NCBI RefSeq assembly: GCF_963675165.1 | Contig: NC_087390.1 | Span: 2,092,001-2,156,000 of the forward strand | DNA: 64,000 nt | Reading direction: 5' to 3' | From: Halichondria panicea | Taxonomy: Eukaryota; Porifera; Demospongiae; Suberitida; Halichondriidae | Shown: one piece after another, positions 22,152-60,716 of the stretch | Position numbering within the stretch: the first letter of the stretch is position 1 | Layout of the letters: every line of letters starts with the position of its first letter | Notes under the pieces: model-generated | What the model saw: only the letters and a program-made list of their open reading frames with translations | Told to the model about the DNA's origin: nothing | Database searches by the model: none | Made by a program: the position numbers and the translations under genes

Positions 22152-25100
22152 CTAGGTCACGTCCCATAGGTCTTGGAGAGAGTATCCTTCTGGTAGTTTT
22201 TCAATGGCTAGTCCCAGCTCAGGGGAGAACACAGGATCACGATCCACGGACTTGTGGGGGTCAGCATAATACGCCTGCAAGGGTGAGGGTATGATTAAGG
22301 GAGACAGTACCCAGAGAACTTACAGCAAAAGTGTCCATCTTGTCTTTGGTCTCCACCACCTCAATATCATCAGTCACACTCTCAGGCACTGGCAGAGATT
22401 GCTCATTATCACCAGAGCTCTACATGAACGGAATGTACCGTTAATGAAACAAAACTGTACTCACTTTGAGTGAAGCCATTTAATAATGTGCAGTATTCAT
22501 AATCCCTTCTCTGTTGTTAACCCACCCTGTTGCTATAGCACACCCACTCACCTGTTGTTCCACTTGGAACTCCACCCCAAACACGGGACTGGCGCAGTAC
22601 ACCTGATAGAGTGAGTGAATCTCTTGTACCACGTCCTTAAGCTTCTCATACGGATCAACTCTGAACCCAAGCACAAACCCCCCACTGTGTTCCGACGTCT
22701 CCATCACCATAGCAACACCGAACTTGGAGTCTCTGACCTTCACAAGCCGCTAAAAACGATATTCATTGATGACTGATTACAGAGCTACTCCTAAAGTGAA
22801 ATGAAAAACACACAATTTCCACTACGTAACCCAGAGAAACACATTATGGGCAGCTGTGTGAAATATTATGGGCAGCTTTGTGACTCCAATATGCTTCTAA
22901 GAAACACATTATGGGCAGCTTTGTGACTCCAATATGCTTCTAAGGAAAAATATTATGGGCAGCTTTGTGACTCCAATATGCTTCTAAGAAACACATTATG
23001 GGCAGCTTTGTGACTCCAATATGCTTCTAAGGAAAAATATTATGGGCAGCTTTGTGACTCCAATATGCTTCTAAGAAACACATTATGGGCAGCTTTGTGA
23101 CTCCAATATGCTTCTAAGGAAAAATATTATGGGCAGCTTTGTGACTCCAATATGCTTCTAAGAAACACATTATGGGCAGCTTTGTGACTCCAATATGCTT
23201 CTAAGGAAACACATTATGGGCAGCTTTGTGACTCCAATATACTTCTAAGGAAACACATTATGGGCAGCTTTGTGACTCCAATATATACTTCTGGGGAAAC
23301 ACATTATGGGCAGCTCTGTGACTCCAATATATACTTCTAAGGAAACACATTATGGGAAGCTTTGTGACTCCAATATACTTCTGAGGAAACACATTACTGG
23401 AAGCTTTGTGACTCTAGATTAATATCCCTTTACAGTTCAATGCAAGCAATCTTAGTTTGCATTTGTGGTTCAAAAGATCAGCCCAATCTACCATGATTTT
23501 ATCGTCACCCCCAATGAAATGGCCATGGCTTAAAGATGGGCGTGCCTTGCTGCTGCCTCGATGAAAGTATGTGTGGCTTTTAACAGCTACACTCTGGTTA
23601 ACTAAGCTTCTTAGCAAGCATGTAGACTATTGTAGATCTGCTGGCTTGTGTATGCTAGCTTGTGTAATACCTGTGTACAACAAATGGCTTGCTGCTTCGT
23701 CTTTGATAACCATTGCTTGTAGTCAGAACATTAAAGGTTTAGGCAATTTGAAACAGAAATTGGGGGAGCTACCCACAGAGCAAAATAAGTATGGAACATC
23801 CAATTTCAGTAGAACCGGCACTACAGAGTGAAGCCAATTTTAGCAAAAAGGGGGCAATTTTATTCATTCAAGATTCATATTCTATGGCTACCAAAATAGT
23901 CCAGAAGGTCTACCAATGATTCTACCAATGATACTACTCAGTCCTATATGGTGCACAGCTGGTCTAAACCTTTTTTTATTCTGTCCTGTCCAGCAAAACT
24001 TCAAAGTATAATCACATTCATCCAATCTACCACAAAAATAATCATTGAAAAGTTAACATGTTGTACTGTAAAAAAGGACAATATACTTCTGGGGTAAACA
24101 CATTATGGGAAGCTTTGTGATTTCTGGAAACACATTCGGCTTTGTGCAATATACTTCTGGGGAAACACATTACGGGGGGCAGCTTTGTGACTCTAGATTA
24201 CAGCGTATAACATAAGGATTTGTGTTAATTCTGACTAGAATGTTGACATAATTATATAACACACGTCCCCAAATTAACTGTTCATACACTCTCACCATTT
24301 GCAGATAGGGTACTGAGATGTTGAAGCTCTCATTGAGGTTGGAGTGCCACACCACACGCACATTAGTGATATACATCGTACCAAGGTTACCCTGGAGTGC
24401 ATGGTAACAAGCAATAAGGCTGTCATCCGTATACCAGCTCATGATACTTACCTGGTCACTGCACAAGTTCCAAACACCATTCAACTGAAAAAAAGACAAC
24501 AATTAATAACAAAAGGTCACACAAACTAATGACTAATGATAATATAATCATAAGAACATACAAGATAGTACACTATAACTGTATACACGCACTTGGGAAA
24601 GAAATTGGGAAAGCCGTAGAGTGCTAGCATGACTGAAACCTTTCTGTATATGCAGCTACAGGACCCACCAAAAGGTACCTCGTTGTAGACACCAGACAAC
24701 CTTCACCACACACACACCCAGCAGTAGTTTCAAGACCGAATCAAGAGTAACCAACACACCACAGACTCACCTTAGTGTATAGCTGCTCTCTGGGCAGTAG
24801 CTTCAACTCTTTGCTCTCTCCCAGTAGGGCACTGCGTAGCTTGAGCTCTCGATAAGGTTTGGACGTCTCGTACGCTCTGTACACTGACATCACCGTGGAG
24901 AACAGGCGAGGGCTGTCCGGAACCTTGCGTACAGGGAGGGAGGGGATTGGTAGATGAAAAAAAAAATTTTGAAATTACTGAATTGAGGAACTACTTACAA
25001 GATTAGTGAAGATAAATTCAAACTGAGTTTTGTCAACTTTAGTCATCAAATACAGCGCTTCAGTTGTCCCTCTTTGTTTCTATGGAAACAGTGTCAAATA

Positions 25101-26855
25101 TAGAGTATTCACGAGTACATTCAGTAACTGTGCACTCACAGAATTCACTCTCTTTGTAGTCACTGAGGTCACTGTGTGGTAACCAATGGCTACAAGAGGG
25201 TATAAGCAAATGTACAGAATTATAGGCTAGTTGGTGAAAGCAATGAATGGATGTACATGTACATCAGAGCTTCTTGATAAAACTCACAAAGGTTGACTCT
25301 CTGATAGTCAGCTGACGTCCAAATCACTCGCAGGTTGGTCACAAACAGTTTACCTGTGTGGGGGAGACATGGTGTTACCTAGACTGGAAACCACTCCCCT
25401 TCTCTCGGGAGAAAGGGACTGGCAAGCTGCCGTGTTGAGAGTTGTCCCAGTGCGTGAGGAATGTCACGCTGCCACAAGAATGTATACGTCACAAATACTC
25501 TGTGCCACCGCCCACACGCTAACTATTACTGCACAAAATATTAACGGCCTCGAGTATAAGTACATTCACTGGCGGTCTGTTATCAAGGCTGAACTAATAT
25601 CATTACGCATTTTGTGGTTTATTCTAATTGCATTCCAACAGGACAACTCTCAACACGGCAACTTGCCAGTCCCCAGAGCCCAGAAGTAAAGGGAGTGGTT
25701 TTCCAGTATAGGTGTTACCTTTATCACCATGGTAACACTAGTGTTCAAGCTGGCGCTGTGCTAATGCCTCTCGCCATGTTTTTGCTTTCGCTGAAAAGTT
25801 ATATTAGTTTCTATAATGAATTTTATATAAAGTTAGCTTATCTATATAAATTCACTGAGAAGAAAAGACTTATTTACATGCATCTATTGTTGTATTATGT
25901 AGACCTCAAGAAAGAAGAAAATTGATTTGTAGTTCAGCATATATAATATCTAAGAAGAAAAGACCTGTGTACATGCATAATTATTGTTATCTATAATATT
26001 ATTGTTATATGGTAGTGTGTTTTGTGGCTTACCAGGCCTTCAAGACAATAATGATTCTGCCAGGAGGATCTGGATCTGGATCTTGGAGTCTTACACATGG
26101 GGAATGAGCACGCATGCGCATTACATCCACAGGAATAATTAAAGGGTGTGTCCAAAGAGATCAATTTCACAAATGGCTACTGCTAGCTAGCTGTTTTAAC
26201 AGATATTTTCTGAGTATTGTAGCTAACAAAAAGCTAGCGCTTTAGTGCAAGGCTAACTCATATATTGAATAGAAAGTTTGTGCGGACAGATGATGCTATG
26301 AAATATTCTGAAGAGACTGCAACAGCCTTCAATGTGAGTCAAACTAGCCATAACTCGAGAAAGAAGCTTTAGTTTGCTAATCCACGAATCAAAATCCAAA
26401 AGAACGTGGCTAGAAGCCTATAGAAGCTGTTAGCTTTCGTCGCATTGCAACCGTTGAGCAGTTATAGCTGGAATACACACACACACAGACAGACACACAC
26501 ACAGTCAGCTTTACCGTATCCCTCGTGCGGCTACGCCTCGAGGCATAATAACAACAACATACCTCTATGTCCATTGTTCCCTTTAGTGTCCTCCACTTGA
26601 GACAAGTAGTCGATCACCGACTCTCCTGCCCTCATCTGGAGCAGGCTGGGTGTGCAGGTGTGTAATGGGTATCATAAAAAATGAGCACATAATTCTAAAC
26701 ACATAAAACTATCCGAATTAACTTACTGTACACCCATGCTTTCAGTGTATATTGTCAGTTTTGTCCCAGCATAATTACACACTACCTAGCTTCACTTACT
26801 GTACTGGGGCATCGAACTTGATCTCCCTGTCCTGCCATACGGTGCTAGAGGCCAT
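22152..26855 (-). CDS. BBS5: BBS5, BBSome subunit (intact copy)
   Basis: Eleven exons join in phase to 344 aa, close to the 341 aa of human BBS5: 26855-26800, 26645-26563, 25353-25288, 25189-25140, 25079-24999, 24923-24771, 24484-24452, 24391-24296, 22749-22552, 22419-22324 and 22274-22152. Diagnostic segments are [83 protein letters not shown] and [15 protein letters not shown]5 has two PH-like domains and is part of the BBSome, which moves membrane proteins into and out of cilia. The gene is divergent from a broken TMEM67 copy, with 144 bp between start codons. Intron 2 carries two inserted elements, and intron 8 holds a long satellite. It is the only BBS5 copy here without disabling changes. 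Confidence 0.93.
22838..23411. repeat. 43-bp tandem repeat in BBS5 intron 8
   Basis: The unit begins AAACACATTATGGGCAGCTT and continues TGTGACTCCAATATGCTTCT. About 13 copies lie head to tail. In the left part they alternate between two variants (AAACACATTATGG and AAAAATATTATGG), giving an 86-bp higher-order unit. More copies occur at 24080-24190 in the same intron, and degenerate arrays occupy the equivalent intron of other BBS5 copies (14200-14690 and 45440-46320). Confidence 0.9.
25381..25711. mobile_element. MITE in BBS5 intron 2, 9-bp target duplication
   Basis: The ends TAGACTGGAAACCACTCCCC and GGGAGTGGTTTTCCAGTATA are inverted copies. GGTGTTACC flanks both sides; the empty site is present once in the other two BBS5 copies near 34850 and 48327. 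A 9-bp duplication points to a Mutator-like or hAT-like source, not a Tc1 type. No ORF is seen inside. Confidence 0.8.
25723..25736. promoter_or_regulatory. RFX-type X-box in BBS5 intron 2
   Basis: ATCACCATGGTAAC fits the RFX X-box (half sites around ATGG). The identical 14-mer is kept in the two other BBS5 copies (34861-34874 and 48338-48351). In the copies without insertions it lies about 320 bp inside the BBS5 start and roughly 450 bp from the TMEM67 side, close enough to serve both ciliary genes. In this copy the inserted elements have moved it further from the promoter. Confidence 0.5.
25738..26550 (+). mobile_element. 0.8-kb repeat element, copy 1
   Basis: Begins near CTAGTGTTCAAGCTGGCGCT and ends ACGCCTCGAGGCATAAT. 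It matches 27656-28460 in inverted orientation and 46888-47723 in direct orientation; the final 200 bp also occur at 32650-32845. The end is a GC-rich hairpin (CCTCGTGCGGCTACGCCTCGAGG). It sits in BBS5 intron 2; the empty site is seen in the copy at 34875. No ORF of recognisable type is inside. Confidence 0.8.
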
Positions 26856-26999
26856 TTTGCAGCAGATTAGGGTGGAGATACGCCCCCTTTCCTGGAGGCC
26901 TGAGAGGGTGGAGATACGCCCCCCTATCCTGCAGGCATAACCTCTAATAAGCTCCATGATTTAGACACCTCCAGCTAGCTCTTCTCGATCTCCGGAGCT
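26856..26999. promoter_or_regulatory. Bidirectional BBS5/TMEM67 promoter, unit A
   Basis: 144 bp separate the two divergent start codons. The region holds two direct copies of GGGTGGAGATACGCCCCC followed by (T)ATCCTG. The same block is found between the start sites in unit B (about 35205-35260) and unit C (49268-49325). No TATA box is obvious. The spacing and the conserved block suggest one shared promoter. Confidence 0.6.
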
Positions 27000-28823
27000 A
27001 TGCTGTCTATTGCTGTCCTCTGCAGCCTCCTAGGAGCTCTATGGATCAGCCCTCTGAATGGCCAACAGACAGGACCCTCTCCAGTGGTGTTTGTGTCACC
27101 AGAGAGCTGTACTGTAGTGAGGGGGTGGAGTACTACAGTCCCTCTAGACTGACCTGTCTCTCATGTACGTGGGGCTAACCGGACCACTGCAGAAGATGGT
27201 AAAAATGAGATGAGCTCGGGAATAAAGTGTATGTGCGATTGTTTGTACTGTACAATGGTTATGGTAACTAGTGGGTAGTGATTAATATTATGGGTTTTGC
27301 AGGGTTGACGTGCACATGCTCGCCTGGTTTTATTCAGATCACAGGATTGCACGGAATGTGCCAGCCCAACAGTAAGCACACACCCTCACCCCTAGCAACC
27401 GTCCCTGTCCCATGCACTGTAGGTATCGTCTCGTGATGGTCTGTTCTGTCTGTCGTGTGTGGATGGCTACAACTCAGCCACTGGACAATGCAACACATGC
27501 CCTGGGGGGAGATCACACATCTTGGGTGAGTGACATTATGGTAACCCCTTACTTAGTACATGTATGAGTATGAATAATACCAGGCACGCTTAAGTTTGCA
27601 TTATTTGCAGTGTTTACAACCTTAAAATTGCTTTTACACTGTACATAATTAATTATGCCTCGAGGCGTAGCCGCACGAGGGATACGGTAAAGCTGACTGT
27701 GTGTCTGTGTGTGTGTCTGTTCCAGCTGTAACTGCTCAACGGTTGCAATGCGACGAAAGCTAACAGCTTCTATAGGCTTCTAGCCACGTTCTCTTGGATT
27801 TTGATTCGTGGATTAGCAAACTAAAGCTTCTTTCTCGAGTTATGGCTAGTTTGACTCACATTGAAGGCTGTTGCAGTCTCTTGAGAATCTTTCATAGCAT
27901 CATCTGTCTGCACAAACTTTCTATTCAACTGAGTTAGCCTTGCACTAAAGCGCTAGCTTTTTGTCAGCTACAATACTCAGAAAATATCTGTTAAAACAGC
28001 TAGCTAGCAGTAGCCATTTGTGAAATTGATCTCTTTGGACACACCCTTTAATTATTCCTGTGGATGTAATGCGCATGCGCGCTCATTCCCCATGTGTGAG
28101 AAAATAATATCCAAGATCCAATCCAGATCCTCCTGGCAGAATCATCTTTGTCTTGAGGGCCTGGTAAGCCATAAAACACTACTATAACAATATAGATAAC
28201 AATATGCATGTACACAGGTCATTTCTTCTTACACACTGAACTACAGATCCTGGAAGAATCAATTTTCTTCTTTCTTGAGGTCCTGGTAAGCCACATAATA
28301 CAACAACAATAGATGCATGTAAACAAGTCTTTTCTTCTCAGTGACTTTATATAGATAAGCTAACTTTAATATAAAATTCATTATAGAAACTAAAATAACA
28401 CTCTAATACTGTTGAGCGAAAGCAAAAACATGGCGAGAGGCATTAGCACAGCGCCAGCTTGAACACTAGTTAATACTGTACTAAATTCATGTTGCTCAGC
28501 ATGCCCCCTAGAATGTTGTGGTCCTCATCAGCCAGATTGCTCCACTGACACGTGCAACCTCCATTTTGTTGGCTGCTGAAGGCAATGATGTACATACTAA
28601 CTGGACATGGCAATATGTACTGTAGCCTTGTTGTGCCTTTTACTTCGTGCCCTATAATGGCACACAGTGCGTATTAACCCCTGTAACTCCTCCCCTAGTT
28701 GACACACCCTGATCCTGCTGGTTCTCCCTGCAATCGTGAGTGTGTAGAGTGTCCTGTAGGGACCTGGGCGACTGTGGGGGGTCTCCAGTGTACCCCTGTG
28801 GAGTGGGAGACTGCTCTCAGTGT
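27000..28823 (+). pseudogene. TMEM67: TMEM67 exons 1-4, broken copy (unit A)
   Basis: Exon 1 (27000 to about 27190), exon 2 (27303-27371), exon 3 (27423-27525) and exon 4 (28699-28823) match the intact gene. Disabling changes: a 5-nt insertion in exon 1 after GAGAGCTGTA, a 4-nt insertion before GTGGGGCTAACC, and an 8-nt deletion in exon 2 that removes the PIG codons. Intron 3 carries the inverted 0.8-kb repeat element. No exon beyond 4 is present; a DCTN2 fragment follows at 30004. Confidence 0.88.
27656..28460 (-). mobile_element. 0.8-kb repeat element, copy 2 (inverted)
   Basis: Reverse-complement of 25738-26550, starting ATTATGCCTCGAGGCGTAGC and ending CCAGCTTGAACACTAGT. It lies in intron 3 of the broken TMEM67 copy. 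With copy 1 it frames the BBS5 and TMEM67 start region in a large inverted repeat. Confidence 0.8.
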
Positions 28824-33160: not shown

Positions 33161-35185
33161 CTCTTTGGGCACTGAGTAGCTTCAATATAGCTTCATAGCC
33201 TGAGCTCTCAATAACGTTTGGACGTCTTGTATGCTCTAGCTATATACTGACATCACCGTGGAGAAGAGGCGAGGGCTGTCCGGGACCTGTGCATGGGGAG
33301 AGGGATTAGTAGATAAAGAACAAGACGCTCATAGAGCATTCACCCCGTGCGTTGAGCTTCATCGCTGTACCATATAATGACCTTAGAATGATTATGAATC
33401 TATAAAGCAACGATTATAAAACAGTTGTTTTGTCGCCTTTGAAGATCACCTACTATCAGTAGCCTATATATTATTTTTCAATTACTGTCTCATGAAGTTA
33501 AAGCAGTTCATGAAGTGTTACGTACGCTGCAAATAGCTCTTTTTGTGTCCACTAGCATAACGAAACTTTTCCTAAATAGAGATATGGGACATTATCAGAT
33601 AAAATTAACCCAACAAAAGATGACAACACTACACAACTATTGTAAACACCAGGAGCATATGAGGAGATGAAGCATGCGGCTGATAACGCGGCTGATCTAA
33701 TAATAGTGAATATCATTATAAGTACACTGAGAATAATTTTAGCTAGAACTTAGCGGTTTGACATACATGGCAATGTTGTACAAGAATCCGCGTAATAAGA
33801 CGCTTCATCTCATGTGCTCCTGTAAGCACCCAGACAGACAACTTTCACTAAACTTTCACTACACACATAACCAGACCAGTTTCAGTACCAACACACCACA
33901 TACTCACCTTAGTGTATACAGCTGCTCTCTTGGCAGTTTCATACTCTCGATATGGTTTGCACATTTCGTACGCTCTGTACACTGACATCACCGTGGAGAA
34001 GAGGCGAGGGCTGTCCGGGACCTTGTGTACAGGGAGGGAGGGGATTGGTAGATGAAAAGAAAGTTTTGAAATTACTGAATTGAGGAACTACTTACAAGAT
34101 TAGTGAAGATAAATTCAAACTGAGTTTTGTCAATTTTAGTCATCAAATACAGCGCTTCAGTTGTCCCTCTTTGTTTCTATGGAAACAGTGTCAAATATAG
34201 AGTCTATTCACGAGTACATTCAGTAACTGTGCACTCACAGAATTCACTCTCTTTGTAGTCACTGAGGTCACTGTGTGGTAACCAATGGCTACAAGAGGGT
34301 ATAAGCAAATGTACAGAATTATAGGCTAGTTTGTGAAAGCATAGATGATACAGTACTGACGTGGATGTGAAATGGCCTAGTATCCGGAGGGGTCCACGGG
34401 AATTGTCTGAAGCTATCATTGTAACGAGCAGATTATGTTAGAAACCCTGTAACTGTCATGTTTATATAGCAACCAGAGCGTAATAAACAGTGTTCCGTGT
34501 CTGAAAACTGGTGAAAATGACCGGCACACATTGATACTTGCAGTGGGCTTGTAGGTAAGACTAGTTCTCTAAGCTCATGGGAGAATATCATATTTTAGCA
34601 TAAATTTTCCAGTAAAAATACTTTGTGTGAGATTTTTGGCTTGGACAGTAAATATTCAGGTTACCATTCAGTAGTAATACTTGAAGTACACTGTAAGTAC
34701 TGTATCATCTATGGTGAAAGCAATGAATGAATGTACATGTACACCAGAGCTTCTTGCTAACTCACAAAGGTTGACTCTCTGATAGTCAGCTGACGTCCAA
34801 ATCACTCGCAGATTGGTCACAAACAGTTTACCTGTGTGGGGGATACATGGTGTTACCTTTATCACCATGGTAACATAACAACAACATACCTCTGTGTCCA
34901 TTGTTCCCTTTAGTGTCTTCCACTTGAGACAAGTAGTCGATCACGGACTCTCCCGCCCTCATCTGGAGCAGGCTGGGTGTGTGCAGGTGTGTAATGGGTA
35001 CCATAAAAAATGAGCACATAATTCTAAACACATAAAACTAACCGAATTAACTTGCTGTACAACCCATGCTTTCAGTGTGTATTGTCAGTTTTGTTCCAGC
35101 ATAATTACACACTATCTAGCTTCACTTACTGTACTGGGGCATCGAACTTGATCTCCCTGTCCTGCCATACGGTGCTAGAGGCCAT
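33160..35185 (-). pseudogene. BBS5: BBS5 exons 1-6, broken copy (unit B)
   Basis: Exons 1 (start codon at 35185), 2 (about 34893-34980), 3, 4 and 5 are close to the intact gene, but exon 6 (about 33907-34022) has lost its middle (the [15 protein letters not shown] part). A second, more diverged exon 6 lies at about 33160-33290. Exons 7-11 are missing. The X-box at 34861-34874 is kept. The copy cannot encode a full BBS5. Confidence 0.85.
34861..34874. promoter_or_regulatory. RFX-type X-box, unit B
   Basis: ATCACCATGGTAAC, identical to the unit A and unit C copies, in intron 2 of the BBS5 fragment and about 310 bp from its start codon. Confidence 0.45.
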
Positions 35186-35324
35186 TTTCACAGCAGCAGA
35201 TCAGGGTGGAGATACCCCCCCTATCCTGCAGGAGGGTGGAGATACGCCCCCATCCTGCACGACCCCTATCGACCTCTGCTCCATGAAGACACCCTCGACC
35301 TCCAGCTAGCTAGCTCTTCTCGGT

Positions 35325-36221
35325 CTAACAGACTGGACCCTCTCCAGTGGTGTTTGTGTCACCAGAGAGCTGTAGTGAGGGGGTGGAGTACTACAGTCCC
35401 TCTAGACTGACCTGTCTCTCATGTGGGGCTAACCGGACCACTGCAGGGTAACTTTTATTAAAATTGAGATGAGCTCGGGAATATATAGAGTGTATGTGTG
35501 ATTGTTTGTACTGTACAATGGTGTGTTGGTTTCTATGGTAACTAATGAATATTGATTAGGATTATGGGTTTTGCAGGATTGACGTGCACATGCTCTTCTG
35601 GTTTTATTCAGCCAATCGGATCACAGGATTGCACGGAATGCGCCAGCCCAACAGTAAGCACCACACACCCCCTACCCCTAGCAACCGTCCACTGTCTCAT
35701 GCACTGTAGGTATCGTCTCGTGATGGTCTGTTCTGTCTGTCGTGTGTGGACGGCTACAACTCAGCCACTGGACAATGCAACACATGCCCTGGGGGGAGAT
35801 CACACATCTTGGGTGAGTGACAACTTACTTAGTAATACCAGCCACGCTCAAGTTTGTAGTGATTTACAACCTTGAAATTTATTTTACACTGTACATAATT
35901 GAAACGTTGCCCAGCATGGCCCCTGGAATTGTGTGGTTCTCCTCAGTAAGATTACTCCACTGAAACGCAACTTCCTTTTGTAGACTCAGGCAACGGATAT
36001 ATACTTTATGTATTTACTGTACACTGAATGTACCAAAGCTTTGTGCCCTATAATGGCATACAGTACTTATTTACCCTTGTAACCCCTCCCCTAGTTGACA
36101 CGCCCCCTGACCCCGCTGGTTCCCCGGCAGTCGTGAGTGTGTGGAGTGTCCTGTAGGGACCTGGGCGACTGTGGGGGGTCTCCAGTGTAACCCCTGTGGA
36201 GTGGGAGACTGCTCTCAGTGT
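35325..36221 (+). pseudogene. TMEM67: TMEM67 exons 1-4, broken copy (unit B)
   Basis: Exon 1 lacks its start codon and signal peptide: sequence jumps from the promoter (CTCTTCTCGGTC) to TAACAGACTGGACCCTCTCC, and its end has lost the AAGAT before the donor. Exons 2 (ending near 35652), 3 (about 35709-35814) and 4 (36095-36221) follow. Exon 4 has small indels and an altered donor. There are no later exons. It is not translatable as meckelin. Confidence 0.85.
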
Positions 36222-46330: not shown

Positions 46331-46887
46331 ATACGCATTTGTGGAGAGTTTTTTAAAAATTCTGACTAGAAATGTTGACATAATTATACAACACACGTCC
46401 GTCCCCAAATAACTGTTAATACCCTCACCATTTGCAGGTAGGGTACTGAGATGTTGAAGCTCTCAGAGTGCCACACCACACGCACATTAGTGATGTACAT
46501 TGTACCAAGGTTGCCCTGGAGTGCATGCATGTAACAAGCAATAAAGCTGTCATCCGTACCAGCTAGCTCATGATGATACTTACCTGGTCACTGCACAAGT
46601 TCCAACGAGTAACCAACACACCACAGACTCACCATTCAACTGAAGAGAAGATAAATAGGCAAAAGGTCACACAAATTAGCATGAAAATAATCACAATATC
46701 AGATAGTTGACACACTAGCTGTACCCACAATTTGAAAGGGAAGTGGGAACTTGAAGCCGTTAGAGTGCTAGCATAACTGAAATCTTTCCTGGATATTAGT
46801 AGTAGCTACAAGACCCACCAAAAGGTGACTCACTACACACCTGGTGTAGACACCTGACAACCTTCACCGCACACATACCCAGCACCA

Positions 46888-47723
46888 GTTTCAATGAGTG
46901 TTGCAAGCGTGCGCTTGCTAATGCCTCTCGCCATGTTATGCTTTCGCTCAAAAAGTATTAGTGTTATAGTATAGTTTCTATAATGAATTTTATATTAAAG
47001 TTAGCTTATCTATATAAAGTTACTGAGAAGAAAAGACTTATTTCTATTGTTGTTATTTATTGTATTATGTGGCTTATAATTACCAGGACCTCAAGAAAGA
47101 TGATTCTTCCAGGATCTGTAGTTCAGTGTATATAATATCTAAGAAGAAAAGACCTGTGTACATGCATATTGTTAATTATTGTTATATGGTAGTGTTTTGT
47201 GGCTTACCAGGACCTCAAGAAAAATATGATTCTGCCAGGAGGATCTGGATCTGGATCTTGGATATTATTTTCTCACACATGGGGAATGAGCGCGCATGCG
47301 CATGCTCATTACATAATTAAAGGGTGTGTCCAAAGAGATCAATTTTACAAATGGCTACTGCTAGCTAGTTGTTTTAACAGATATTTTCTAAGTCTTGTAG
47401 CTAACAAAAAGCTAGCGCTTTAGTGCAAGGCTAACTCATACGTTGAATAGAAAGTTTGTGCAGACAGATGATGCTATGAAAGATTCTGAAGAGACTGCAA
47501 CAGCCTTTAATGTGAGTCGAAATAGCCATAACTCGAGAAAGAAGCTTTAGTTTGCTAATCCACGAATCAAAATCCAAGAGAACGTGGCTAGAAGCCTATA
47601 GAAGCTGTTAGTTTTCGTCGCATTGCAACCGTTGAGCAGTTACAGCTGGAACAGACACACACCGAGACACACAGACAGTAAGCTTTACCGTATCCCTCCT
47701 GCGGCTACGCCTCGAGGCATAAT
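46888..47723 (+). mobile_element. 0.8-kb repeat element, copy 3
   Basis: Direct copy of 25738-26550, ending ACGCCTCGAGGCATAAT. An AATGAGT repeat on each side looks like a target duplication. It sits in intron 6 of the BBS5 pseudogene. Confidence 0.75.
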
Positions 47724-48337
47724 GAGTAACCAACACACCACACACTCACCTTAGTGTACAGCTGCTCTCTGGGGAGTAGCTTCAACTCTTTGCTCTCTCC
47801 CAGTAGGGCACTGCATAGCTTGAGCTCTCGATAAGGTTTAGACACATCACCGTGGAGAACAGGCAAGGGCTGTCCGGGACCTGTGTACAGGGAGGGAGGG
47901 ATTGGTTGATGAAAAGAAAAAAAGAATTACTAAATTGAAAGAATTACTAAATTGAGGAACTGCTTACAAGATTAGTGAAGATGAATTCAAACTGAGTCTT
48001 GTCAACTTTAGTCATCAAATACAGCGCTTCAGTTGTCCCTCTTCAATGTTTCTATGGAAACAGTGTCAAATATAGAGTATTCACAAGTACATTCAATAAC
48101 TGTTTTCTCACAGAATTCACTCTCTTTGTAGTCACTGAGGTCACTGTGTGGTAACCAATGGCTACAAGAGGGTAAGCAAATGTACAGAATTATAGGCTAG
48201 TTTGTGAATGTACATGTACACCAGAGCTTCTTGCTAACTCACAAAGGTTGACTCTCTGATAGTCAGCTGACGTCCAAATCACTCGCAGGTTGGTCACAAA
48301 CACTTTACCTGTGTGGGGGAGACTTGGTGTTACCTTT

Positions 48338-48351
48338 ATCACCATGGTAAC
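48338..48351. promoter_or_regulatory. RFX-type X-box, unit C
   Basis: ATCACCATGGTAAC in intron 2 of the BBS5 pseudogene, about 1.0 kb from the intact TMEM67 start because of the exon-1 MITE. It could still act on TMEM67. Confidence 0.45.
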
Positions 48352-48665
48352 ATAACAACAACATACCTCTGTGTCCATTGTTCCCTTTAGTGTCCTCTAC
48401 TTGAGACAAGTACACTGTAGTCGATCACCGACTCTCCAACTTCTGGAGCAGGCTGGGGGTGTGCAGGTGTGTAATGGGTACCATAAAAATAATAATACTT
48501 TACACCCAATTATTATTAAAAACTATCTTGCTGTACGTACAACCAGGAGTACTCCTGGTACAACCCATGCTTTCAGTGTATACTGTCAGTTTTGTCCCAG
48601 CATAATTACACACTATCTAGCTTCACTTACTGTACTGGCCGGGGCATCGAACTTGATCTCCCTAC

Positions 48666-49221
48666 TACAGTACTTTTCAAGTAGGTTGAATCATTCAAAG
48701 TTGAATGTTGAAGTGAGTACTCACACCACTAAACCACAAAACAAAGCTGATCATGATTATGATCTACCCACAAGCTTCATAATTATGTACAAATGTATAT
48801 GTGTATCTTTGCTTGAACTTCTCCTAAGTAAGTGCCTAGATTTTCAAAGAGTATCTGTAGCACTGTTACGGATTCAACATAGGATGAGGACCATGCATGC
48901 CTTTGCTACTTTGGCTCGACATCTCCACTTCTCCCGAACTAATGCTCTATTCTTTTACAGTACTTTTGCTGATGTACATTAATTCTCTTACTTGGTTTGC
49001 TTAAGTAGTGTAGCAACACTCTGCACCTCAAGTCATTTGAATATGCATCTAGATGAACACCCACACATGTAGTCAGTGCTGTGTATTATCATGCATGGCA
49101 TCATCACACTGACAGGCTGTGACAGCCATCTACAGTTGTATCAGCTTTGTGGTTTAGTGGTGGGAGTACTCACTTCAACATTCAACTTTGAATGATTCAA
49201 CCTACTTGAAAAGTACTGTAG
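48666..49221. mobile_element. MITE inserted into BBS5 exon 1 (unit C)
   Basis: Inverted ends of about 75 bp: CTACAGTACTTTTCAAGTAG at left and CTACTTGAAAAGTACTGTAG at right, continuing through TTGAATGTTGAAGTGAGTAC. It interrupts the exon between codons for EI and QD. The empty site is seen in units A and B. The target duplication is at most a CT dinucleotide. Confidence 0.85.
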
Positions 49222-49250
49222 CTGTCCTGCCATACGGTGCTAGAGGCCAT

Positions 49251-49381
49251 TTTCACAGCAGCAGATTAGGGTGGAGATACGCCCCCTATCCTGCAGGAGG
49301 GTGGAGATACGCCCCCCTATCCTGGAGGCATGACCCCTATCGACCTCTGCTCCATGATTTAGACACCTCTTCTCCGGAGCT
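49251..49381. promoter_or_regulatory. TMEM67 promoter region (shared with dead BBS5)
   Basis: 131 bp between start codons, with two direct copies of GGGTGGAGATACGCCCCC. The block is conserved in units A and B. It now probably drives only TMEM67 usefully, since the BBS5 side is broken. Confidence 0.55.
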
Positions 49382-52300
49382 ATGCTTTCTGTTGCTGTCC
49401 TCTGCAGCCTCCTAGGAGCTCTATGGATCAGCCCTCTGAATGGCCAACAGACAGGACCCTCTCCAGTGGTGTTTGTGTCACCAGAGAGCTGTAGTGAGGG
49501 GGTGGAGTACTACAGTCCCTCTAGACTGACCTGTCTCTCATGTGGGGCTAACCGGACCACTGCAGAAGATGGTAACTTTTATTAAAATTGAGATGAGCTC
49601 GGGAATAAAATGCATGTGCGATTGTTTGTACTGTAAGGTGGTGTATTGGTTTCTATGGTAACTAGTGTATCGATTAAGATTGTGGGTTTTGCAGGGTTGA
49701 CGTGCACATGCTCGCCTGGTTTTATTCAGCCAATCGGATCACAGGATTGCACGGAATGTGCCAGCCCAACAGTAAGCACCACACACCCCCTACCCCTAGC
49801 AACCGTCCCTGTCCCATGCACTGTAGGTATCGTCTCGTGATGGTCTGTTCTGTCTGTCGTGTGTGGACGGCTACAACTCAGCCACTGGACAATGCAACAC
49901 ATGCCCTGGGGGGAGATCACACATCGTGGGTGAGTAACATCTTACTTAGTAATACCAGCCACGCTCAAGTTTGCAGTGATTTACCACAACCTTGTCACAC
50001 TGTACATAATTGAAACGTTGCCCACCATGGCCCCTGGAATTGTGTGGTTCTCCTCAGTCAGATTACTCCACTGAAACGCATCTTCCTTTTTGTAGACTCA
50101 GGCAACGGATATATATGTACTTACTGTACACTGAATGTACCAAAGTTTTGTGCCCTACAGTACTTATTTACCTTTGTAACCCCTCCCCTAGTTGACACGC
50201 CCCCTGATCCCACTGGTTCCCCCGGCAGTCGTGAGTGTGTGGAGTGTCCTGTAGGGACCTGGGCGGCTGTGGGGAGTCTCCAGTGTACCCCCTGTGGAGT
50301 GGGAGACTGCTCTCAGTGTGTGAGTGTTGTTAGCCTCGTTCCCGGTCGGACTTTCCTCTATGGAACAATTGGTCTGGGAACGAGGCTAGAGTGTTGTACA
50401 ATGTTTGCATGGAATGTAAGAACACCCATATATCGTATTACCGTATAGCTGGTTATTTTCGAAGGATTGACCCAAAAATTAGTGCCTCAAAAATTGCTTT
50501 ACATCCGTACTAAACCTCTCTATTGTAGAGATGTGGTCATTTGAACCGCTATCCTTGAAAATATAATGATTTGGGCAATCCGCAAAAATTTAGTGCCTCG
50601 AAAATAACCCGCTATAACAGTACTGCAATGTTTTGCGAACTTAATTGGCAAGTGCTAATAGCTTCGCAAAAAAGATCACAATAAACTTTGCCAGCTAGAT
50701 CACACATTGTTAAAATTTTTTGGCTCATTCGTAAAAGTTCACTCACAAAACATTGTGATAATACGGTACATGTATAGCGAGCGGGTAGTTTGCGGTTTTC
50801 GCTAATTGAGCATGTACCGCCATAGATAATAGGAAGGGGATTGGAAACGATCACGTGAACTTGCTTGCAACGAAAGGCCTCTGGACAGTCCGCATGTCAA
50901 CCAATAGACACCTTGAGGTGTGATATCACTGGTTTTGAGGTAATTTTCGTGGGGCAAAATATTCGTGGTTTTTGTGGTTGGAGGTCTGACCACGAATATT
51001 TTACCCACGAATGAAGCGACCTTGCCTACCTTTACCTGCAGTGCAAGCAGCTACCACGAAAATATTACCCACGAAATGTCTCAATATTGCTGAACCATGA
51101 ATATTTTGTCCCCCGAAAATTACCCGCTATACGGTATACTTTATAGCCTAGCTAGCTAGCTGTGGCCCTCTATGGTGTTGTCGAGAAGGCTTGCACACTA
51201 GTCTGAAACCAGAAGAGGCTCTCATCTACCTCTATGATGGCTGGATGGTCGTGATGTTTTGAACTTGGTTTCTGTTATAAATGAGAGCTTCGATCGATCT
51301 TCTGGCTCCAGACTAGTGTGCAAGCCTTCTCGATAACACCATAGAGGGCCACAGCTAGCCAGCAAGTCTTCTCGACAACGCAATAGAGAGCATAAGCCAT
51401 AGCTTCACAGGAGACAAGTATTTGTACGGAAAGAAACTAGTAAACAAACTAGTTTACGGTATAATTTTACAAAGGTTTAATAAAGTAAATAATGGGTGAC
51501 CCAGATTCTGGGGTGACTCAGTTCGCGCATGTGTACTATTATAGATACCAGGCTGTATTTTAATCGGCCTGCATGGTCTCGAGGCTAGTCGAGTCATGGA
51601 CCCACCATAAATATTCCATTTTTTGCCCTGAGAACGTCATTATGATGTAATGATCTTTACCAAAAATGGATACTGATGCCTATAATTATTATATATTCCT
51701 AGCTATAATATATACATGTAGCCTTGACTGGTCACCCCAGGCCGCAACTTCATCAGGGGAGACCAGTGAAGGAGGCTAGGAAGGCCATGCAATCAGGTTA
51801 CCTCTGATTCCCAATATGCTTTAGACACCTATGCTAGCAATCAACCTGTATTTAACGTATCAACTCATTATGAACCAAGTTCTATACTACATTAATTGTA
51901 AACTAGTATTACAGGTTCAGAGAGTTAGTCTTATACTTCCAGACTTGGCAGCTTGAATAACTTTGAGCCTCTTCTCCAAATCATTTTTGATCTTGCAGAG
52001 ATCATCGGTATCAGGGACAACAGTGCCTTCAAGATGTGTCTCGATCACAGCTAGTTGATTTTCAATCAGCTTGGCATAGTTGCGAGCTACACCTAATGAC
52101 TCAAATTCTAAGATATTGCTAGAGAGCTTTTCAGACAGTTTCTTTCTTTTTGCTTTTGATTTATTCAATTTCCTTTCAAAATTGCTATACAGCATTGTAG
52201 CTCGCTCCTCATCACTTTCTGCTTTTTCAAATTTTTCATCATCGGAAATAAGATCCTCTACAACTTTTTCGTGTATAAAATCATTGTGATAGTGATAGGT

Positions 52301-54638
52301 GTAGCTGTGGGTACACGCATTGCACATCTCGTCTTCATCTCCATTTATAATGCATGCACAACGCTTGAATACTTCTTTATCGAATGACTTCTGAAGGTAA
52401 CACGGCACATGGCAGTTGCTATGACAACCCTTGAACCCACAGAGTGTATTGTGGTCATCTGTTTCTTTTACAACCCATTTCACGAATGTCTGAATGGTTT
52501 TGAAGTCTTTGTTGAGAGTTTTAGATTTCACCGCTGCGTCAACTTCGGCCTTGGCATCTTTGAGAGACTTCTCCAACATCATCTGGTTGTCATAGGCTGT
52601 CAGCGAGTCTAGAACGTTTTTCTCAATCGCTTTCTTCTTCTCGTAGAGCTCGATGAAGTGATGCGTGTGAACTTCAGGGAAATCTGCAATGGTCTTACAC
52701 ATCTCAGTAAGGACTTCAGAGGTTTCTTCAAACGATTTCTTTAAGCTTTTAGCAACTTTCTCAATTCCTAGTTGACCCAATTTTGCTTTAGCTTTCTCAA
52801 GCCGACAGTACGGATTTTCAACAAAAAACGTATTTTCAACTTCTTTTCCAAAATACTCTTTCAGCACATTTGTATCGTAGTTGAGGTCCAGAGCGTCGGC
52901 TGTGTTACTGAACACAACAATGAGGTTGTCAATGATACGTCTCGGCAAGATGGCAGTTATCTCAGAAAGGACATACTTCAATGAAGCACTTGCTCGAGGT
53001 TGACGGCCATGAATGACCAGGCAGACACAGTTGATGTACTCTTCTCTCTTGAGGGTGCTGATGATTCGTTGTACTTTCGTTTTGTCTTGCTTGAAGCCAC
53101 GTAGGTCACCAAATCCAGGAGTATTGATCACTCCAACCTTCAGGTCACCTACTTCCACATTATAGAGTGTAGCGTCATTGGTCCTAGTTTCCATAGGGAG
53201 TGCTTGTGCGTTTTCAAGCTTGATGTCGTTGAATTGTTTGAGTTGCTCGAGACCTTCAGCTCCAAACCCAGAGCTAAGAGCTTGTACAGTGGCACAGTTG
53301 TAGAGAAGGTTGAGGAAAGAAGTCTTGCCAGATCCTGTTTCACCGATGAGTAGCATCTTGAAGGGATGATGACGATCTTGTCTCTGGAATGCCTGGAGAA
53401 CACGAGCGTTTATCCCAGATGGTGTTACAAAAGATCTAAAAATGGCGCCTATATAGCTCACTCCTTTTTGGTGATCTTTTCTGGATGTTACTGTAAATAA
53501 ATAATTATTTAAAAGGCTATTTGCTTCACATGCAAGGGTCATTATACCTTGTGTTTTTCGTGTTACGGTGGGTTGTTTTGACTCTGGTGGGTTGTTGTGT
53601 CTGATGGATTGTTGAGGTTCTACCACTTTTGTTCTTGTGGACTGGTTCTATAAAGTAATAATTGTAGGTGGGTGTATGCTATGCATGCTATCACTATTAT
53701 ACCTGATCCATGTATTGTATGGTGATTGTAGTTTTCTCAAAAGCTTCCAATAGTTCCAGTACACACTCATGTGATACTTCAATCTCTTGCCCAATTCTCA
53801 TCTTCACTTTAGTACTTGTGTTCCTCTCACTAGGTCTTGTCGTTGTTATCGTGCTGTGCGATTCAAAGCAATTGTTTAGTATCTCAACAATTGATTTAGT
53901 CCATGATCCTTGTTCCTTTAAGACAGCGACAAATTTGTGATAGACTCGAGGGTTGTTTTCAATTGAGGTCTCCAAAGCGTCCAGAACTTTCCTAGTTTTT
54001 TTGTTTGGCGTTGAACTGCTTTGATGTATCTGATTTTTCAGATATTTAGAAATCAACTCTTGTGAGTATAAAGTATCTCCTATGCTAGCAACAGATTGTT
54101 GAAGAAGTTGTACTAACTTGTCATAGCACTGTCTAATTGTCTTGTGCTCTGGTGAACTCCCACAAGTAGCTTGAGGATTGTATGTAGCCATCTTTAGCAT
54201 ACAGGTATACTAAATAGCTAGATGTACATTTACTATATCAACAAGTTAATGGGCTTATAGCACACCTGGACGAAATCACAAGACTTATGAATTTTGATAG
54301 TACTAGATATTCACTTATTCACTATTCTCTCCTCCTACAGACGATTGCCACCACTCATGGTGGAGTGTGTTTCCCCCCCACCCCTCCATTACCCTCACCC
54401 CCGACCAATGCCTTCCCCTACTACCAGGAACACTTCACTGCAGCCACTCAACTTTGTGTGGTGAGAATGAGTGGGTGTATACATTGTGTGTGTGTGCATT
54501 GTTTACAAAGCCATATGCACATGTGCTCTGTACATTGTGTACTTCCCTGAAAAGGGTTCATTTAGCCTACTATAGCTACTTTATTTTTCGTTCACACGCA
54601 CGCACACACATGCACGCACGCACACACACGCATGCACG

Positions 54639-54683
<45 letters not shown>

Positions 54684-54684
54684 G

Positions 54685-54734
<50 letters not shown>

Positions 54735-57700
54735 ATGGCAATGCTTCGTCCTGTCAACTGTTGGCCAACCTGTGTACTCTACAACTCTACAACCGTGACG
54801 ACCCTGCCTGTGTGCTGATTCAGCAGTACTCAGAGGACCTCCTGCAGAGCCTCTATTACCCCCCAGGGAGCGCTGACCAGGTGTTGGAGAGCACTGGCAT
54901 CCAGACACCTCTCATTACCGGAGAGGGTGCCGAGGTAAGTTACTCTTAAATGTTTCCACAAGAGAGCTGGGATTTACAATCCATGCACATGTACAAAAGC
55001 TATTATACAAACCACTATTCTAACGTGCCATATACAGTAGCTGAAATTCACATGACATGTACTACCCCCCCCCCCCCTCTCTCTGTGTAGGGTGTGTCTA
55101 ATCTCCCACTGTGGGCGGGCTCCTACTCTCTCAACGGGACCCTACTGGGACTGGAGGAGCTGACTCAGCAGATACTACTCTGTACTGAGCCCCAGCCGAG
55201 GGCCAGCGCTCTCTGGAGGGTGGGTGTGGTCTATCAAATCTCGGTGAGCCCCTAGTGTAGTAGTGTAGTGTAGCCAGCATGTATTAGTACAAAACGTATG
55301 TGCAGTTAATTGTGTATTCTAGACTGAGTCCTATTCTATTCCCCACGACATGTATACTCACACAAGTGTACAGTGTCCGCTGAAGCTCTGCTCAGAAAAG
55401 GCTCAAATGCTCCAGTATTCTACGAGCTCTGTATCCTCCAATACCTCTATTGTAGTGTACCGAGCATGCCCAGTAGTCTCCTAACACACCGAGCATGCCC
55501 AGGAGTCTCCTAACGCACTAAGCATGTCCAGTAGTCTCCTAACGCACTAAGCATGCCCAGTAGTCTCCTAACGCACTAAGCATGCCCATAGTCTCCTAAC
55601 ATACTAAGCATGCCCAGTAGTCTCCTAACGCACCAAGCATGCCCAGTAGTCTCCTAACGCACTGAGCATGCCCAGTAGTCTCTTAACACACCGAGCATGC
55701 CCAGTAGTCTCCTAACGCACCAAGCATGCCCAGTAGTCTCCTAACGCACCAAGCATGCCCAGTAGTCTCCTAACGCACTAAGCATACCCAGTAGTCTCCT
55801 AACGCACCGAGCATGCCCAGTAGTCTCCTAACGCACCAAGCATACTGAGAATGACCAGTAGTCTACTAACATACTGAGAATGACCAGTAGTCTACTAACA
55901 TACTGAGAATGCCCAGTAGTCTCCTAACGCACTGAGCATGCCCAGCAGTCTCCTTAACCACACCCCAGACCTACGTGATCAGACCTCAACCACGGACACT
56001 CTCCACACTCTACCAGTGCTCATCACTAACTATAGGAGCACGTCTGGGGAGGCAGTCAACGACGACAGCAATGTGGGAAGCTGGCAGTTTGTGAGGAGAT
56101 TCTTCCTCTTTGAGTCCGTCACAGCCCGCCCCCTCTACACTAGCTCCACCACCCTCACGTAAGTCACACTTACTTATCAAATTCGGTGAATCTATTCCCT
56201 ATATCTCAGAATTTAGTTTTTTTATTGATTTTTGCCTCTCCTAAGATGTAGTAAACGTCACAGCTCTATTTTAATATTACAGAGTGTTGATGATGTCTGA
56301 GGGAGGGAGAATATTCCCCCCTTATCTTAGAGTGAGCTATTCTAATTGGACGCCTACTGACCAGGACCTTCCAGTAAGTGATGTAACCATGACAGTAGTG
56401 TAGCATTCGACTACAATTTAGATTGATGATCACAAATGTGTACCCTCCTCCGCCAGAGCTCCCATATCACGGAGTATGCGGGTACTAGTCAATCATTCCT
56501 CATCGCTCTGATAGTGTTGTCCCTTGTCTGTGCCGTTCTGGGTGGTGTGTACTCAGGGTTAAAGGTCAACGGGTTCGTACGACGGACTGGACTCACCTGC
56601 TGTGACCTACACGTTAGTTGACAGTGAAAATAGAGTAGTACATGTGAGAGGCCATACATGTACTTAATATAGTCGTTAGCTAAGTGTTTGTTTGCTCTGA
56701 CGTTTACAGCCTATGAATTTGATTACTTTTTGCTGGTGAAATTTTTTTGAATGAGCAAAATCAGCAGAAAATTGATCTTTTGCGATCTAACTATAACTAT
56801 TGCGATTTGACAAGGATTGCAGTGGCGTAGGCAGGGGGGCTGGCAGAGCTAGAGCCCCCCTCCCTTTATGCTCCATCAACTCCAACTTAGCTTGAATCAT
56901 CGTGATCTGTCGATCTATTTTGCTGAGGAAAAGTGATGGTTCAGCGCCTATGCTCAACCAATTTGAGCTCTGTCCTTCCCAAAATCCTGGCTACGCCACT
57001 GGAATGTATGCATTTACCAGTACTAATTTAAGTTTTGAGATTTTGTTTGCATTATGTTTGATGCTCGCAAAACATTATAGTGTAACACGGTATTTACTGT
57101 TGCAGTAATAATCCTCTCCTCCTCCCTCTCTTCCAGTCCCTTGTGTATGCTGTGGTGATGTTCTGTGATGGAACCTCAACCCTCCTCTACCTACTCCTCA
57201 CTGCCATCTCTCTCTTCTGGCTCATATTCTACAAGGTGTGTGTATAAAGCTATCTCGTTGGTAGCTACTGTACTCTGTGTAAAAGTAAAAGACAGTATTT
57301 TGGTACTTTCCCGGCTAATTCTAGCAATTTCAATGTTTTTTCCGGCTAGCCTGTGTTATTTGTGGGCGTACAAGTACACCCTTGTATACATAACTAGACT
57401 TACTATATAATTATGCTACATAATAATATAGCTGTGTATTTGTAGCAGTCGATGTGTGGGCGTACAAGTGCACAGCTACATGTACACAGATATACATGTA
57501 CAGATTTTGCTCCTTATCTTATACACTTTCAATTGACCAAAATTGTGTCTGTTACTTAAGATTGACTCTATACATGTTCCCCCTCAGGTACAATACTACC
57601 TGCTGCTACCCCTCCCCTCACCAACAGAGGACCTCACATTCATCCTCCTATTAGCAATGGCTGCACTCTTCAGAGTGAGTAGAATATTGCACTACTTTTG

Positions 57701-60700: not shown

Positions 60701-60716
60701 AACGATTCTTGTTGTG
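49382..60716 (+). CDS. TMEM67: Meckelin (TMEM67/MKS3), intact copy
   Basis: About 20 exons: 49382-49571, 49695-49771, 49827-49929, 50192-50319, 54341-54460, 54734-54934, 55091-55243, 55323-55451, 55969-56158, 56283-56373, 56457-56612, 57137-57235, 57588-57674, 58382-58774, 58850-59047, 59336-59471, 59522-59598, 59730-59832, 59971-60113 and 60637-60716, about 950 aa (human 995). Signal peptide, then a Cys-rich extracellular part, then several membrane segments (first near ALIVLSLVCAVLGGVY). Diagnostic: VDVFFIDWEKPRG, WRTYFVVNEWNELQ, RQFVDLCSVANVSV, YYIHGKSVHGHAD-like GHYIHGKSVHGHADT, and C-terminal KKTLVDERFLL. Meckelin acts at the ciliary transition zone. The exon 8/9 junction is uncertain: my phases do not match and a minisatellite fills the gap. 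Intron 4 contains a GTPase gene on the other strand. Confidence 0.93.
50440..50625. mobile_element. MITE with TACCGTATAGC ends in TMEM67 intron 4
   Basis: The left end TACCGTATAGCTGGTTATTT pairs with the right end CGAAAATAACCCGCTATAAC. CTCGAAAAT/GTTATTTTCG arms support the fold. More TACCGTATAGC-like half sites follow to 51137. Confidence 0.65.
51140..51400. repeat. Inverted repeat in TMEM67 intron 4
   Basis: GAAGGCTTGCACACTAGTCT at 51186 is repeated inverted near 51312-51331, with GTGGCCCTCTATGGTGTTGT (51163) inverted at 51337-51356, forming arms of about 50 bp with CTCTCATC/GATGAGAG-like inner parts. Confidence 0.65.
51917..54200 (-). CDS. CARD-like domain plus AIG1/septin-like GTPase (gene 6), nested in TMEM67 intron 4
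   Basis: Three exons in phase: 54200-53703, 53647-53548 and 53490-51917, about 723 aa. The first exon encodes a helical segment of about 100 residues (CYDKLVQLLQQSVAS ... ENNPRVYHKFVAVLKEQGSW) that resembles the CARD-like adaptor modules common in invertebrate immune proteins, then a Ser/Thr-rich linker. The third exon carries the P-loop GETGSGKTSF. Switch II reads INTPGFGDLRG, with Asn where all five paralogues have Asp. SNTAD and ENPYCRLEKA follow, then the Cys/His cluster (CHSNCHVPC, CNACTHSYTYHYH, where the usual CGH is CTH) and a coiled coil. An alternative is a three-exon gene with an unrelated helical N-terminus. It may share the adaptor-GTPase logic of genes 1 and 2 by a different N-terminal domain. 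Confidence 0.85.
54592..54733. repeat. CA/CG-rich microsatellite at TMEM67 exon 6 acceptor
   Basis: A run of CACA with CACG and CATG interruptions that ends directly in the AG acceptor of exon 6 (54734). It replaces the usual pyrimidine tract. Open frames across it are simple-repeat artefacts. Confidence 0.9.
55468..55955. repeat. 29-bp minisatellite between TMEM67 exons 8 and 9
   Basis: About 17 head-to-tail copies of GCATGCCCAGTAGTCTCCTA followed by ACGCACTAA. Every unit contains an in-frame or near-frame TAA for the exon 8 frame, so it must lie in an intron if the gene is active. The last copies are more diverged (TGAGAATGACCAGTAGTCTA). Confidence 0.9.
57904..58239. mobile_element. MITE with TACCGTATAGCGGGTATATT ends
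   Basis: The left end TACCGTATAGCGGGTATATT and right end AATATACCCGCTATACGGTA are perfect inverted copies; TCGAGGGTATAAATTTTCGC extends the left arm and is repeated internally (58146-58172). It lies in the intron before TMEM67 exon 14. Confidence 0.9.
60203..60595. mobile_element. MITE with ACCGTATATCTTCTAATTTA ends
   Basis: The left end ACCGTATATCTTCTAATTTA pairs with the right end TAAATTAGAAGATATACGGC, extended by TCGGACA/TGTCCGA. It lies in the last TMEM67 intron. Confidence 0.85.

What the first reader, a model, noticed from the sequence alone, without database searches (positions are those of the whole stretch)
22152..60716. Reciprocal decay of a duplicated head-to-head ciliary gene pair
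BBS5 and TMEM67 share a promoter of under 150 bp in three units. In unit A BBS5 is intact (11 exons in phase) and TMEM67 is broken. In unit C TMEM67 is intact and BBS5 is broken by at least five lesions. In unit B both are broken. The working copies now sit about 22 kb apart and use different copies of the same promoter.
Basis: partly seen in the sequence, partly recalled or inferred. Interest (0 to 1): 0.8.

Follow-up and report, generated by a model that had tools for sequence, protein, structure and literature searches.

The report
Ciliary gene pair split across duplicates
In this animal genome two cilia genes that share one start region were copied several times along with neighbouring immune-like genes, and no copy kept both genes whole: one copy keeps the first gene, three others keep the second.

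Summary
The in-window observation holds. Unit A has a complete BBS5 (11 exons) and a truncated TMEM67. Unit C has a complete TMEM67 (20 exons) and a wrecked BBS5. Unit B has neither. Start codons lie 144 (A) and 131 nt (C) apart. But the window cuts the array: the flanks hold two more units, D and E, within 43 kb of its end, each with a TMEM67 that reads complete and a dead BBS5. One complete BBS5 was found in the assembly. No unit keeps both genes, but 1 and 3 survivors among 5 units avoid each other by chance 2 times in 5. In A and B, TMEM67 exons 5-20 are absent, as if removed by deletions that also took the 3' part of the next unit's BBS5. The array is also a cluster of AIG1/septin-like GTPases, one nested in TMEM67 intron 4. 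Best reading: an expanding, possibly immune GTPase cluster copied the ciliary pair as a passenger, and deletions then uncoupled it. No expression data were available; the species was not determined.

The parts
22152..26855 (-). BBS5, unit A, the only complete copy found: 11 exons, 344 aa
   Evidence: no other complete copy among the matches
26856..26999 (.). Shared start region of unit A, 144 nt between start codons, holding two copies of a 16-nt promoter word
27000..28823 (+). TMEM67 unit A remnant: exons 1-4 with indels, exons 5-20 not found
33196..35185 (-). BBS5 unit B remnant: exons 1-6, exon 6 broken and partly repeated, exons 7-11 not found
35186..35326 (.). Start region of unit B; the TMEM67 start codon is lost
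35327..36221 (+). TMEM67 unit B remnant: exon 1 (from nt 65) to exon 4
43598..49250 (-). BBS5 unit C remnant: exons 1 (split), 2-8 (7 partial) and a fragment of 11; exons 9 and 10 not found
49251..49381 (.). Shared start region of unit C, 131 nt between start codons
49382..60717 (+). TMEM67 unit C, complete: 20 exons, 929 aa in the revised model
   Evidence: two further copies lie beyond the window (D 70215-86818, E 95072-106348 in extended window coordinates)
20199..21728 (-). X-type AIG1/septin-like GTPase downstream of BBS5 A, open frame of 510 aa
30513..32135 (-). Y-type AIG1/septin-like GTPase at the A-B border, open
38691..40307 (-). Y-type GTPase at the B-C border, open
51920..53419 (-). 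Y-type GTPase nested antisense in TMEM67 C intron 4, open
53700..54191 (-). CARD-like open frame upstream of the nested GTPase, same strand
   Evidence: CARD 23.8 bits, just under the cut-off of 23.9
55431..55968 (+). TMEM67 C intron 8 (revised model) with a minisatellite of about 29 nt; the near-identical C/D and C/E blocks begin in it
7384..7519 (+). Relic of TMEM67 exon 1
14761..14861 (-). Relic of BBS5 exon 8

Best explanation
A head-to-head BBS5/TMEM67 pair lies inside a tandemly expanding cluster of AIG1/septin-like GTPase genes: one type (X) lies just downstream of BBS5 in A, D and E, another (Y) is nested antisense in TMEM67 intron 4 in C, D and E. Unequal exchange between similar GTPase copies, and at a minisatellite in TMEM67 intron 8, multiplied the whole block and carried the ciliary pair along as a passenger. 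Redundancy then let the passengers break: in A and B the last 16 exons of TMEM67 were removed by deletions that run into the 3' part of the next unit's BBS5, and BBS5 in B, C, D and E lost exon 9 and more. What remains is one complete BBS5 (A) and three complete TMEM67 (C, D, E), each beside its own copy of the once-shared start region. Shown: copies, their order, lesions, missing exons, open frames. Inferred: that the GTPases were the driver, that each border deletion was a single event, and that the complete copies are the expressed ones.
For: All matches to BBS5, TMEM67 and the promoter word lie in one stretch of one contig (16 of 16, 14 of 14, 33 of 33, 21 of 21 and 8 of 8; the tool scores only the best candidates). 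GTPases alternate with the pair: X at 20.2, 65.1, 91.2 kb, Y at 30.5, 38.7, 51.9, 77.5, 98.3 kb; 6 of these 8 are open frames of 512-576 aa, Y77 and Y98 are short (266 and 338 aa). The A-B and B-C borders run from a Y GTPase through repeat-like DNA into truncated BBS5; DNA comparison of 31900-33950 and 40300-43700 shows no TMEM67 exon 5-20, CD225 gene or second X GTPase there. TMEM67 C vs E differ less in exons than outside: 11/498 vs 45/436 (exons 1-4), 5/564 vs 26/542 (5-8), 8/1740 vs 33/2970 (9-20), Fisher p 1e-7, 7e-5, 0.02. dN/dS 0.32 (C-E), 0.41 (C-D), 0.20 (E-D). Both used the older exon 8/9 ends. AIG genes are called prone to expansion and loss, usually in tandem arrays, in a snail (PMC7053062, abstract read).
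Against: No expression data: nothing shows that any copy is transcribed. The direction of cause rests on layout only; two of five Y GTPases are themselves truncated. The border deletions have no exact breakpoints because repeat-like DNA fills both borders. The 99.4% identical C/D block could be an assembly effect. Exon/intron contrast for BBS5 remnants is mixed: 5 of 10 unit pairs have p < 0.05 and 5 do not. D counts as intact only with the revised exon 8 donor, which is weak.
Confidence: 0.6

Rival explanations
1. Reciprocal decay proper: after duplication each unit slowly lost the partner it did not need, leaving one working BBS5 and one working TMEM67.
For: No unit keeps both genes complete; BBS5 in C and D carries several small indels typical of slow decay.
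Against: Three complete-looking TMEM67, not one; TMEM67 A and B lack exons 5-20 outright; a disjoint outcome is expected by chance in 2 of 5 arrangements (arithmetic).
Confidence: 0.15
2. Selection for extra TMEM67: several copies are kept because dosage or diverged ectodomains are useful, while extra BBS5 brought nothing.
For: All three read open with GT-AG introns; amino-acid differences among C, D and E lie at positions 62-380 apart from one at 857; dN/dS 0.20-0.41.
Against: The last 12 exons are nearly identical through recent copying or conversion, so the clustering of differences follows the switch point in intron 8 and needs no selection.
Confidence: 0.15
3. Assembly artefact: haplotypes joined in tandem create some of the units.
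For: C and D blocks are 99.4% identical over 12.5 kb; the X GTPases at 65.1 and 91.2 kb are identical over 1533 nt; C and E differ by about 1% outside exons in the last part.
Against: C differs from E by 5-10% and from D by about 12% in introns upstream (C-D exons 5-8 left out because that alignment is strained) and by large indels; A and B have structures of their own; no BBS5, TMEM67 or promoter match was found on other contigs; the 164 kb hold no N.
Confidence: 0.1

Closest known systems
Tandem arrays of AIG1/GIMAP GTPase genes in invertebrates (Biomphalaria glabrata, PMC7053062, abstract read)
   Same: Tandem array of GTPases matching the AIG1 model, with added domains on some members
   Different: AIG1 and Septin models both match weakly here, and a ciliary gene pair is interleaved with the array
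Head-to-head gene pairs with a shared promoter (PMC3024869, PMC7817982; only the starts of the abstracts in the listing seen)
   Same: Two genes start within 150 nt of each other on opposite strands
   Different: The pair is multiplied and then uncoupled; transcription starts were not tested
TMEM138-TMEM216 linked ciliary genes (recalled; one search gave a listing only)
   Same: Two ciliary genes side by side with shared regulation (recalled)
   Different: Head-to-tail in vertebrates and not multiplied (recalled, not tested)
Complementary loss after duplication, the duplication-degeneration-complementation model (recalled)
   Same: Ancestral functions end up on different copies
   Different: The units of loss are two whole genes rather than subfunctions of one, and large deletions seem to do much of the work

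Membership tests
BBS5 (BBSome subunit) | Full-length similarity to BBS5 | tested here: met
   Unit A protein matches solved BBS5 over 5-343 of 344 aa, E 1.3e-136; Pfam BBL5 hits over the cut-off
TMEM67 / meckelin | Similarity from the Cys-rich ectodomain to the C terminus | tested here: met
   Unit C protein matches 7fh1 over 30-929 of 929 aa, E 8.9e-141; Pfam Meckelin hits
Head-to-head pair with shared promoter | Divergent genes with starts under 1 kb apart | tested here: met
   144, 131, 130 and 142 nt between start codons in A, C, D, E; start codons, not transcription starts; in B the TMEM67 start codon is lost
Head-to-head pair with shared promoter | Transcription in both directions from it | not testable with these tools
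RFX-controlled ciliary promoter | X-box motif (recalled consensus) above chance | tested here: not met
   Best matches 9, 9, 9 and 8 of 11 positions in A, C, D, E, reached by 108, 106, 95 and 199 of 200 letter shuffles; 0 exact matches of the 3-nt-spacer form in the window
Reciprocal decay of a duplicated pair | One working copy of each gene, in different units | tested here: not met
   One complete BBS5 but three complete-looking TMEM67, two even under the rejected exon 8 model; 'working' itself is untested
AIG1/GIMAP GTPase family | AIG1 domain over Pfam's cut-off | tested here: inconclusive
   Of 6 GTPases scanned, 4 pass the AIG1 cut-off (27.7-31.0 vs 27 bits) and 4 pass the Septin cut-off (27.5-29.6 vs 26.2 bits)

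The most novel reading that the evidence does not exclude
A GTPase gene of immune type (CARD-like plus AIG1/septin-like) nested inside a ciliary gene drives recurrent copying of that gene: selection or recombination at the GTPase has multiplied TMEM67 to three constrained copies, broken its shared start region with BBS5, and left BBS5 and TMEM67 at different copy numbers although their products serve one organelle.
Probability: 0.3. Interest if true: 0.6.

Novelty: new member of a known kind. Interest (0 to 1): 0.42.

Why it matters
It is a concrete case of how a gene pair with a shared start region can be uncoupled: copying as passengers of a fast-changing gene cluster, then loss at unit borders. 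Complete, partly broken and relic copies sit side by side, so the order of events can be tested by sequencing relatives. It also shows how a 64-kb window can make a passenger array look like tidy reciprocal loss.

Tried and rejected
First exon 8 model of TMEM67 (end at 55456 in C) made unit D look shifted by 5 nt. I rejected it: moving the exon 8 end to 55430 and the exon 9 start to 55969 scores better against meckelin (474.2 vs 469.7 bits, whole protein; 27.7 vs 22.3 bits, local piece) and opens all three copies. The donor (GTATCC) is weak, so RNA is needed. In one search a fixed search word misplaced exon 9 in D and E; one search corrected it.

Rows dropped: figures for C vs D exons 5-8 and C vs A exons 1-4 are distorted by global alignment across large inserts and are not used; the exon counts stand in. 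In one search introns whose lengths differed by more than 40% between two units were left out of the intron sums by the script (this removes intron 3 of unit B). Searches used the older exon 8/9 ends. In one search the broken copies were compared only at codons aligned without gaps to the complete copy; that cannot tell on which lineage a change fell, and I do not lean on it. In one search the two three-row segments gave no tree and the script reprinted an older one, which I ignored. The listings are capped at 45 rows a stretch.

X-box: no signal above chance. Literature: no held paper has BBS5, TMEM67 and 'bidirectional promoter', or BBS5, TMEM67 and 'synteny', or 'bidirectional promoter', 'ciliary genes' and 'head-to-head'. 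Searches gave background listings only.

Full report
Setting. The window is G000:C14:2092001-2156000 of a 131-Mb, 39-contig assembly. To see past the window I fetched 40 kb to the left and 60 kb to the right. Coordinates above 64000 are extended window coordinates (contig position minus 2092000).

The observation. Splicing by hand gives one complete BBS5 in unit A: 11 exons, 26855 to 22152 on the minus strand, 10 of 10 introns GT-AG, 344 aa, matching solved BBS5 over residues 5-343. TMEM67 in unit C has 20 exons, 49382-60717, 19 of 19 introns GT-AG, 929 aa, matching solved meckelin from residue 30 to the end. A search with each of the 31 exons in the 164-kb region and exon alignments show what is missing elsewhere. 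BBS5 exon 9 (198 nt) is found only in A, 1 of 5 units; in a protein search of the whole assembly the only match that spans it is also in A. TMEM67 exons 5-20 are found in C, D and E only, 3 of 5 units; a search of the whole assembly with the last seven exons gives 21 matches, seven in each of these three. Unit B has neither gene complete.

What the window hid. The array continues. 55459-67941 is repeated at 81564-94032 with 99.4% identity, and 55550-62375 at 101185-108017 with 97.4%. Units D (BBS5 remnant 66.9-70.1 kb, TMEM67 70215-86818) and E (BBS5 remnant 93.0-94.9 kb, TMEM67 95072-106348) each hold a TMEM67 of 20 exons, 2790 coding nt, one terminal stop and GT-AG introns throughout. C, D and E differ from each other by 25-43 nt and 11-17 aa. 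BBS5 D and E are dead: D has exon 1 split and exons 8 and 9 not found, E has exons 1 and 7-9 not found, and both share damage at the end of exon 6, the exon 10 donor and in exon 11.

A difficulty. Under my first model exon 8 ended further on, and D alone was shifted by 5 nt. I chose the earlier end because it matches meckelin better; it also opens D. The donor that it uses is weak.

Start region. Start codons are 144 (A), 131 (C), 130 (D) and 142 nt (E) apart; in B the TMEM67 start codon is gone. The word GGTGGAGATACGCCCC has 8 exact matches in the assembly: A 2, B 1, C 2, D 2, E 1; the reversed control has 0. No X-box stands out. Whether transcription goes both ways is untested.

Is the complementarity meaningful? 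One BBS5 survivor and three TMEM67 survivors among five units avoid each other by chance in 2 of 5 arrangements (arithmetic), so the pattern alone is weak evidence for a reciprocal process. In addition, TMEM67 A and B end after exon 4, next to a Y-type GTPase, and the next thing along is repeat-like DNA and then a BBS5 that lacks its own 3' part. The simplest account is one deletion per border that removed the 3' part of TMEM67 of one unit together with the CD225 gene, the X GTPase and the 3' part of BBS5 of the next. That would link the loss of TMEM67-A with that of BBS5-B, and the loss of TMEM67-B with damage to BBS5-C. This is inference; no breakpoint is resolved.

The neighbours. Between and inside the pairs sit GTPases of two types: X at 20.2, 65.1 and 91.2 kb, Y at 30.5, 38.7, 51.9, 77.5 and 98.3 kb, and two filamin-GTPases at 1.8 and 8.9 kb. 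In C, D and E the Y GTPase lies antisense in TMEM67 intron 4. Of six GTPases scanned, four pass Pfam's AIG1 cut-off and four the Septin cut-off. An open frame upstream of the C copy is CARD-like (23.8 bits, cut-off 23.9), a frame at 5567-6517 is Death-like (20.0, cut-off 22.6), both just under the cut-off; a frame at 61810-62178 passes as CD225 (32.9, cut-off 27.1). AIG genes are described as prone to expansion and loss, usually in tandem arrays, in a snail (PMC7053062, abstract). In the sponge Dysidea avara (written 'D. avara' in the passages), GTP-binding proteins of the GIMAP family were among the genes responding to symbionts, while such genes were not detected in Amphimedon queenslandica (PMC11229196, passages; the genus name is recalled). 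This makes the GTPases the likely driver and the cilia genes the passengers, but layout is the only direct evidence. Y77 and Y98 are truncated, so GTPase copies decay as well.

Constraint. Between C and E, exons differ less than the rest in all three parts of the gene: 11/498 vs 45/436, 5/564 vs 26/542, 8/1740 vs 33/2970. Between C and D the first and last parts show the same (8/498 vs 50/431; 2/1740 vs 17/2985); the middle part was dropped (see Tried and rejected). dN/dS is 0.20-0.41. Both calls used the older exon 8/9 ends. For BBS5 exons 2-6 against introns 3-5, 5 of 10 unit pairs have p below 0.05 (A-C, A-D, A-E, C-D, C-E) and 5 do not (A-B, B-C, B-D, B-E, D-E); in A-B the exons differ more than the introns (4.6% vs 2.2%). 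So TMEM67 copies look maintained; for BBS5 remnants the signal is mixed.

Mosaic history. In exons 5-7 E differs from C at 4 of 474 positions and D at 22 of 474, yet from intron 8 onward C and D are nearly identical (99.4%). The near-identical blocks begin at 55459 and 55550, in the intron 8 minisatellite, a plausible crossover point. The trees of BBS5 exons 3-6 and of the start region with TMEM67 exons 1-4 disagree on the grouping of units, as expected for an array with exchange, so I give no order of duplications.

Verdict. The sequence facts are good; the story 'one working copy each, by reciprocal decay' is too neat. A better reading is passenger copying in a GTPase cluster with deletion at unit borders, leaving one complete BBS5 and three complete-looking TMEM67. 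It is an instructive case of a known kind of process.

Noticed in passing
51920-54191 (-), in TMEM67 C intron 4: CARD-like open frame followed on the same strand by a GTPase; a possible donor and acceptor would join them into one CARD-GTPase gene nested antisense in TMEM67. The frame is also open in E; the D and E GTPase frames are short.
   Followed up: partly
40497-43181: Element with inverted ends of about 398 nt, 98% alike, and an internal direct repeat, between the unit B GTPase and the BBS5 C remnant; no target-site duplication of 7-10 bases found.
   Followed up: partly
25737-26549, 27652-28470, 46897-47723: A repeat of about 820 nt sits in BBS5 A intron 2, inverted in TMEM67 A intron 3, and between exons 7 and 6 of the BBS5 C remnant.
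   Followed up: no
22774-23295, 45437-46334, 14287-14702: Minisatellite of 43-44 nt in BBS5 A intron 8, with related repeats in the BBS5 C region and beside the relic BBS5 exon 8.
   Followed up: no
61810-62178 (-): CD225 (IFITM-type) open frame, repeated at 87911-88279 and 107445-107813 in extended coordinates.
   Followed up: no
1829-3937 and 8931-11048 (-): Two long open frames joining a filamin repeat to the same kind of GTPase.
   Followed up: no
G000:C14:2884707-2885909: A further GTPase, 72-79% identical to the X type, about 0.7 Mb from the array; no BBS5 or TMEM67 match lies near it.
   Followed up: no
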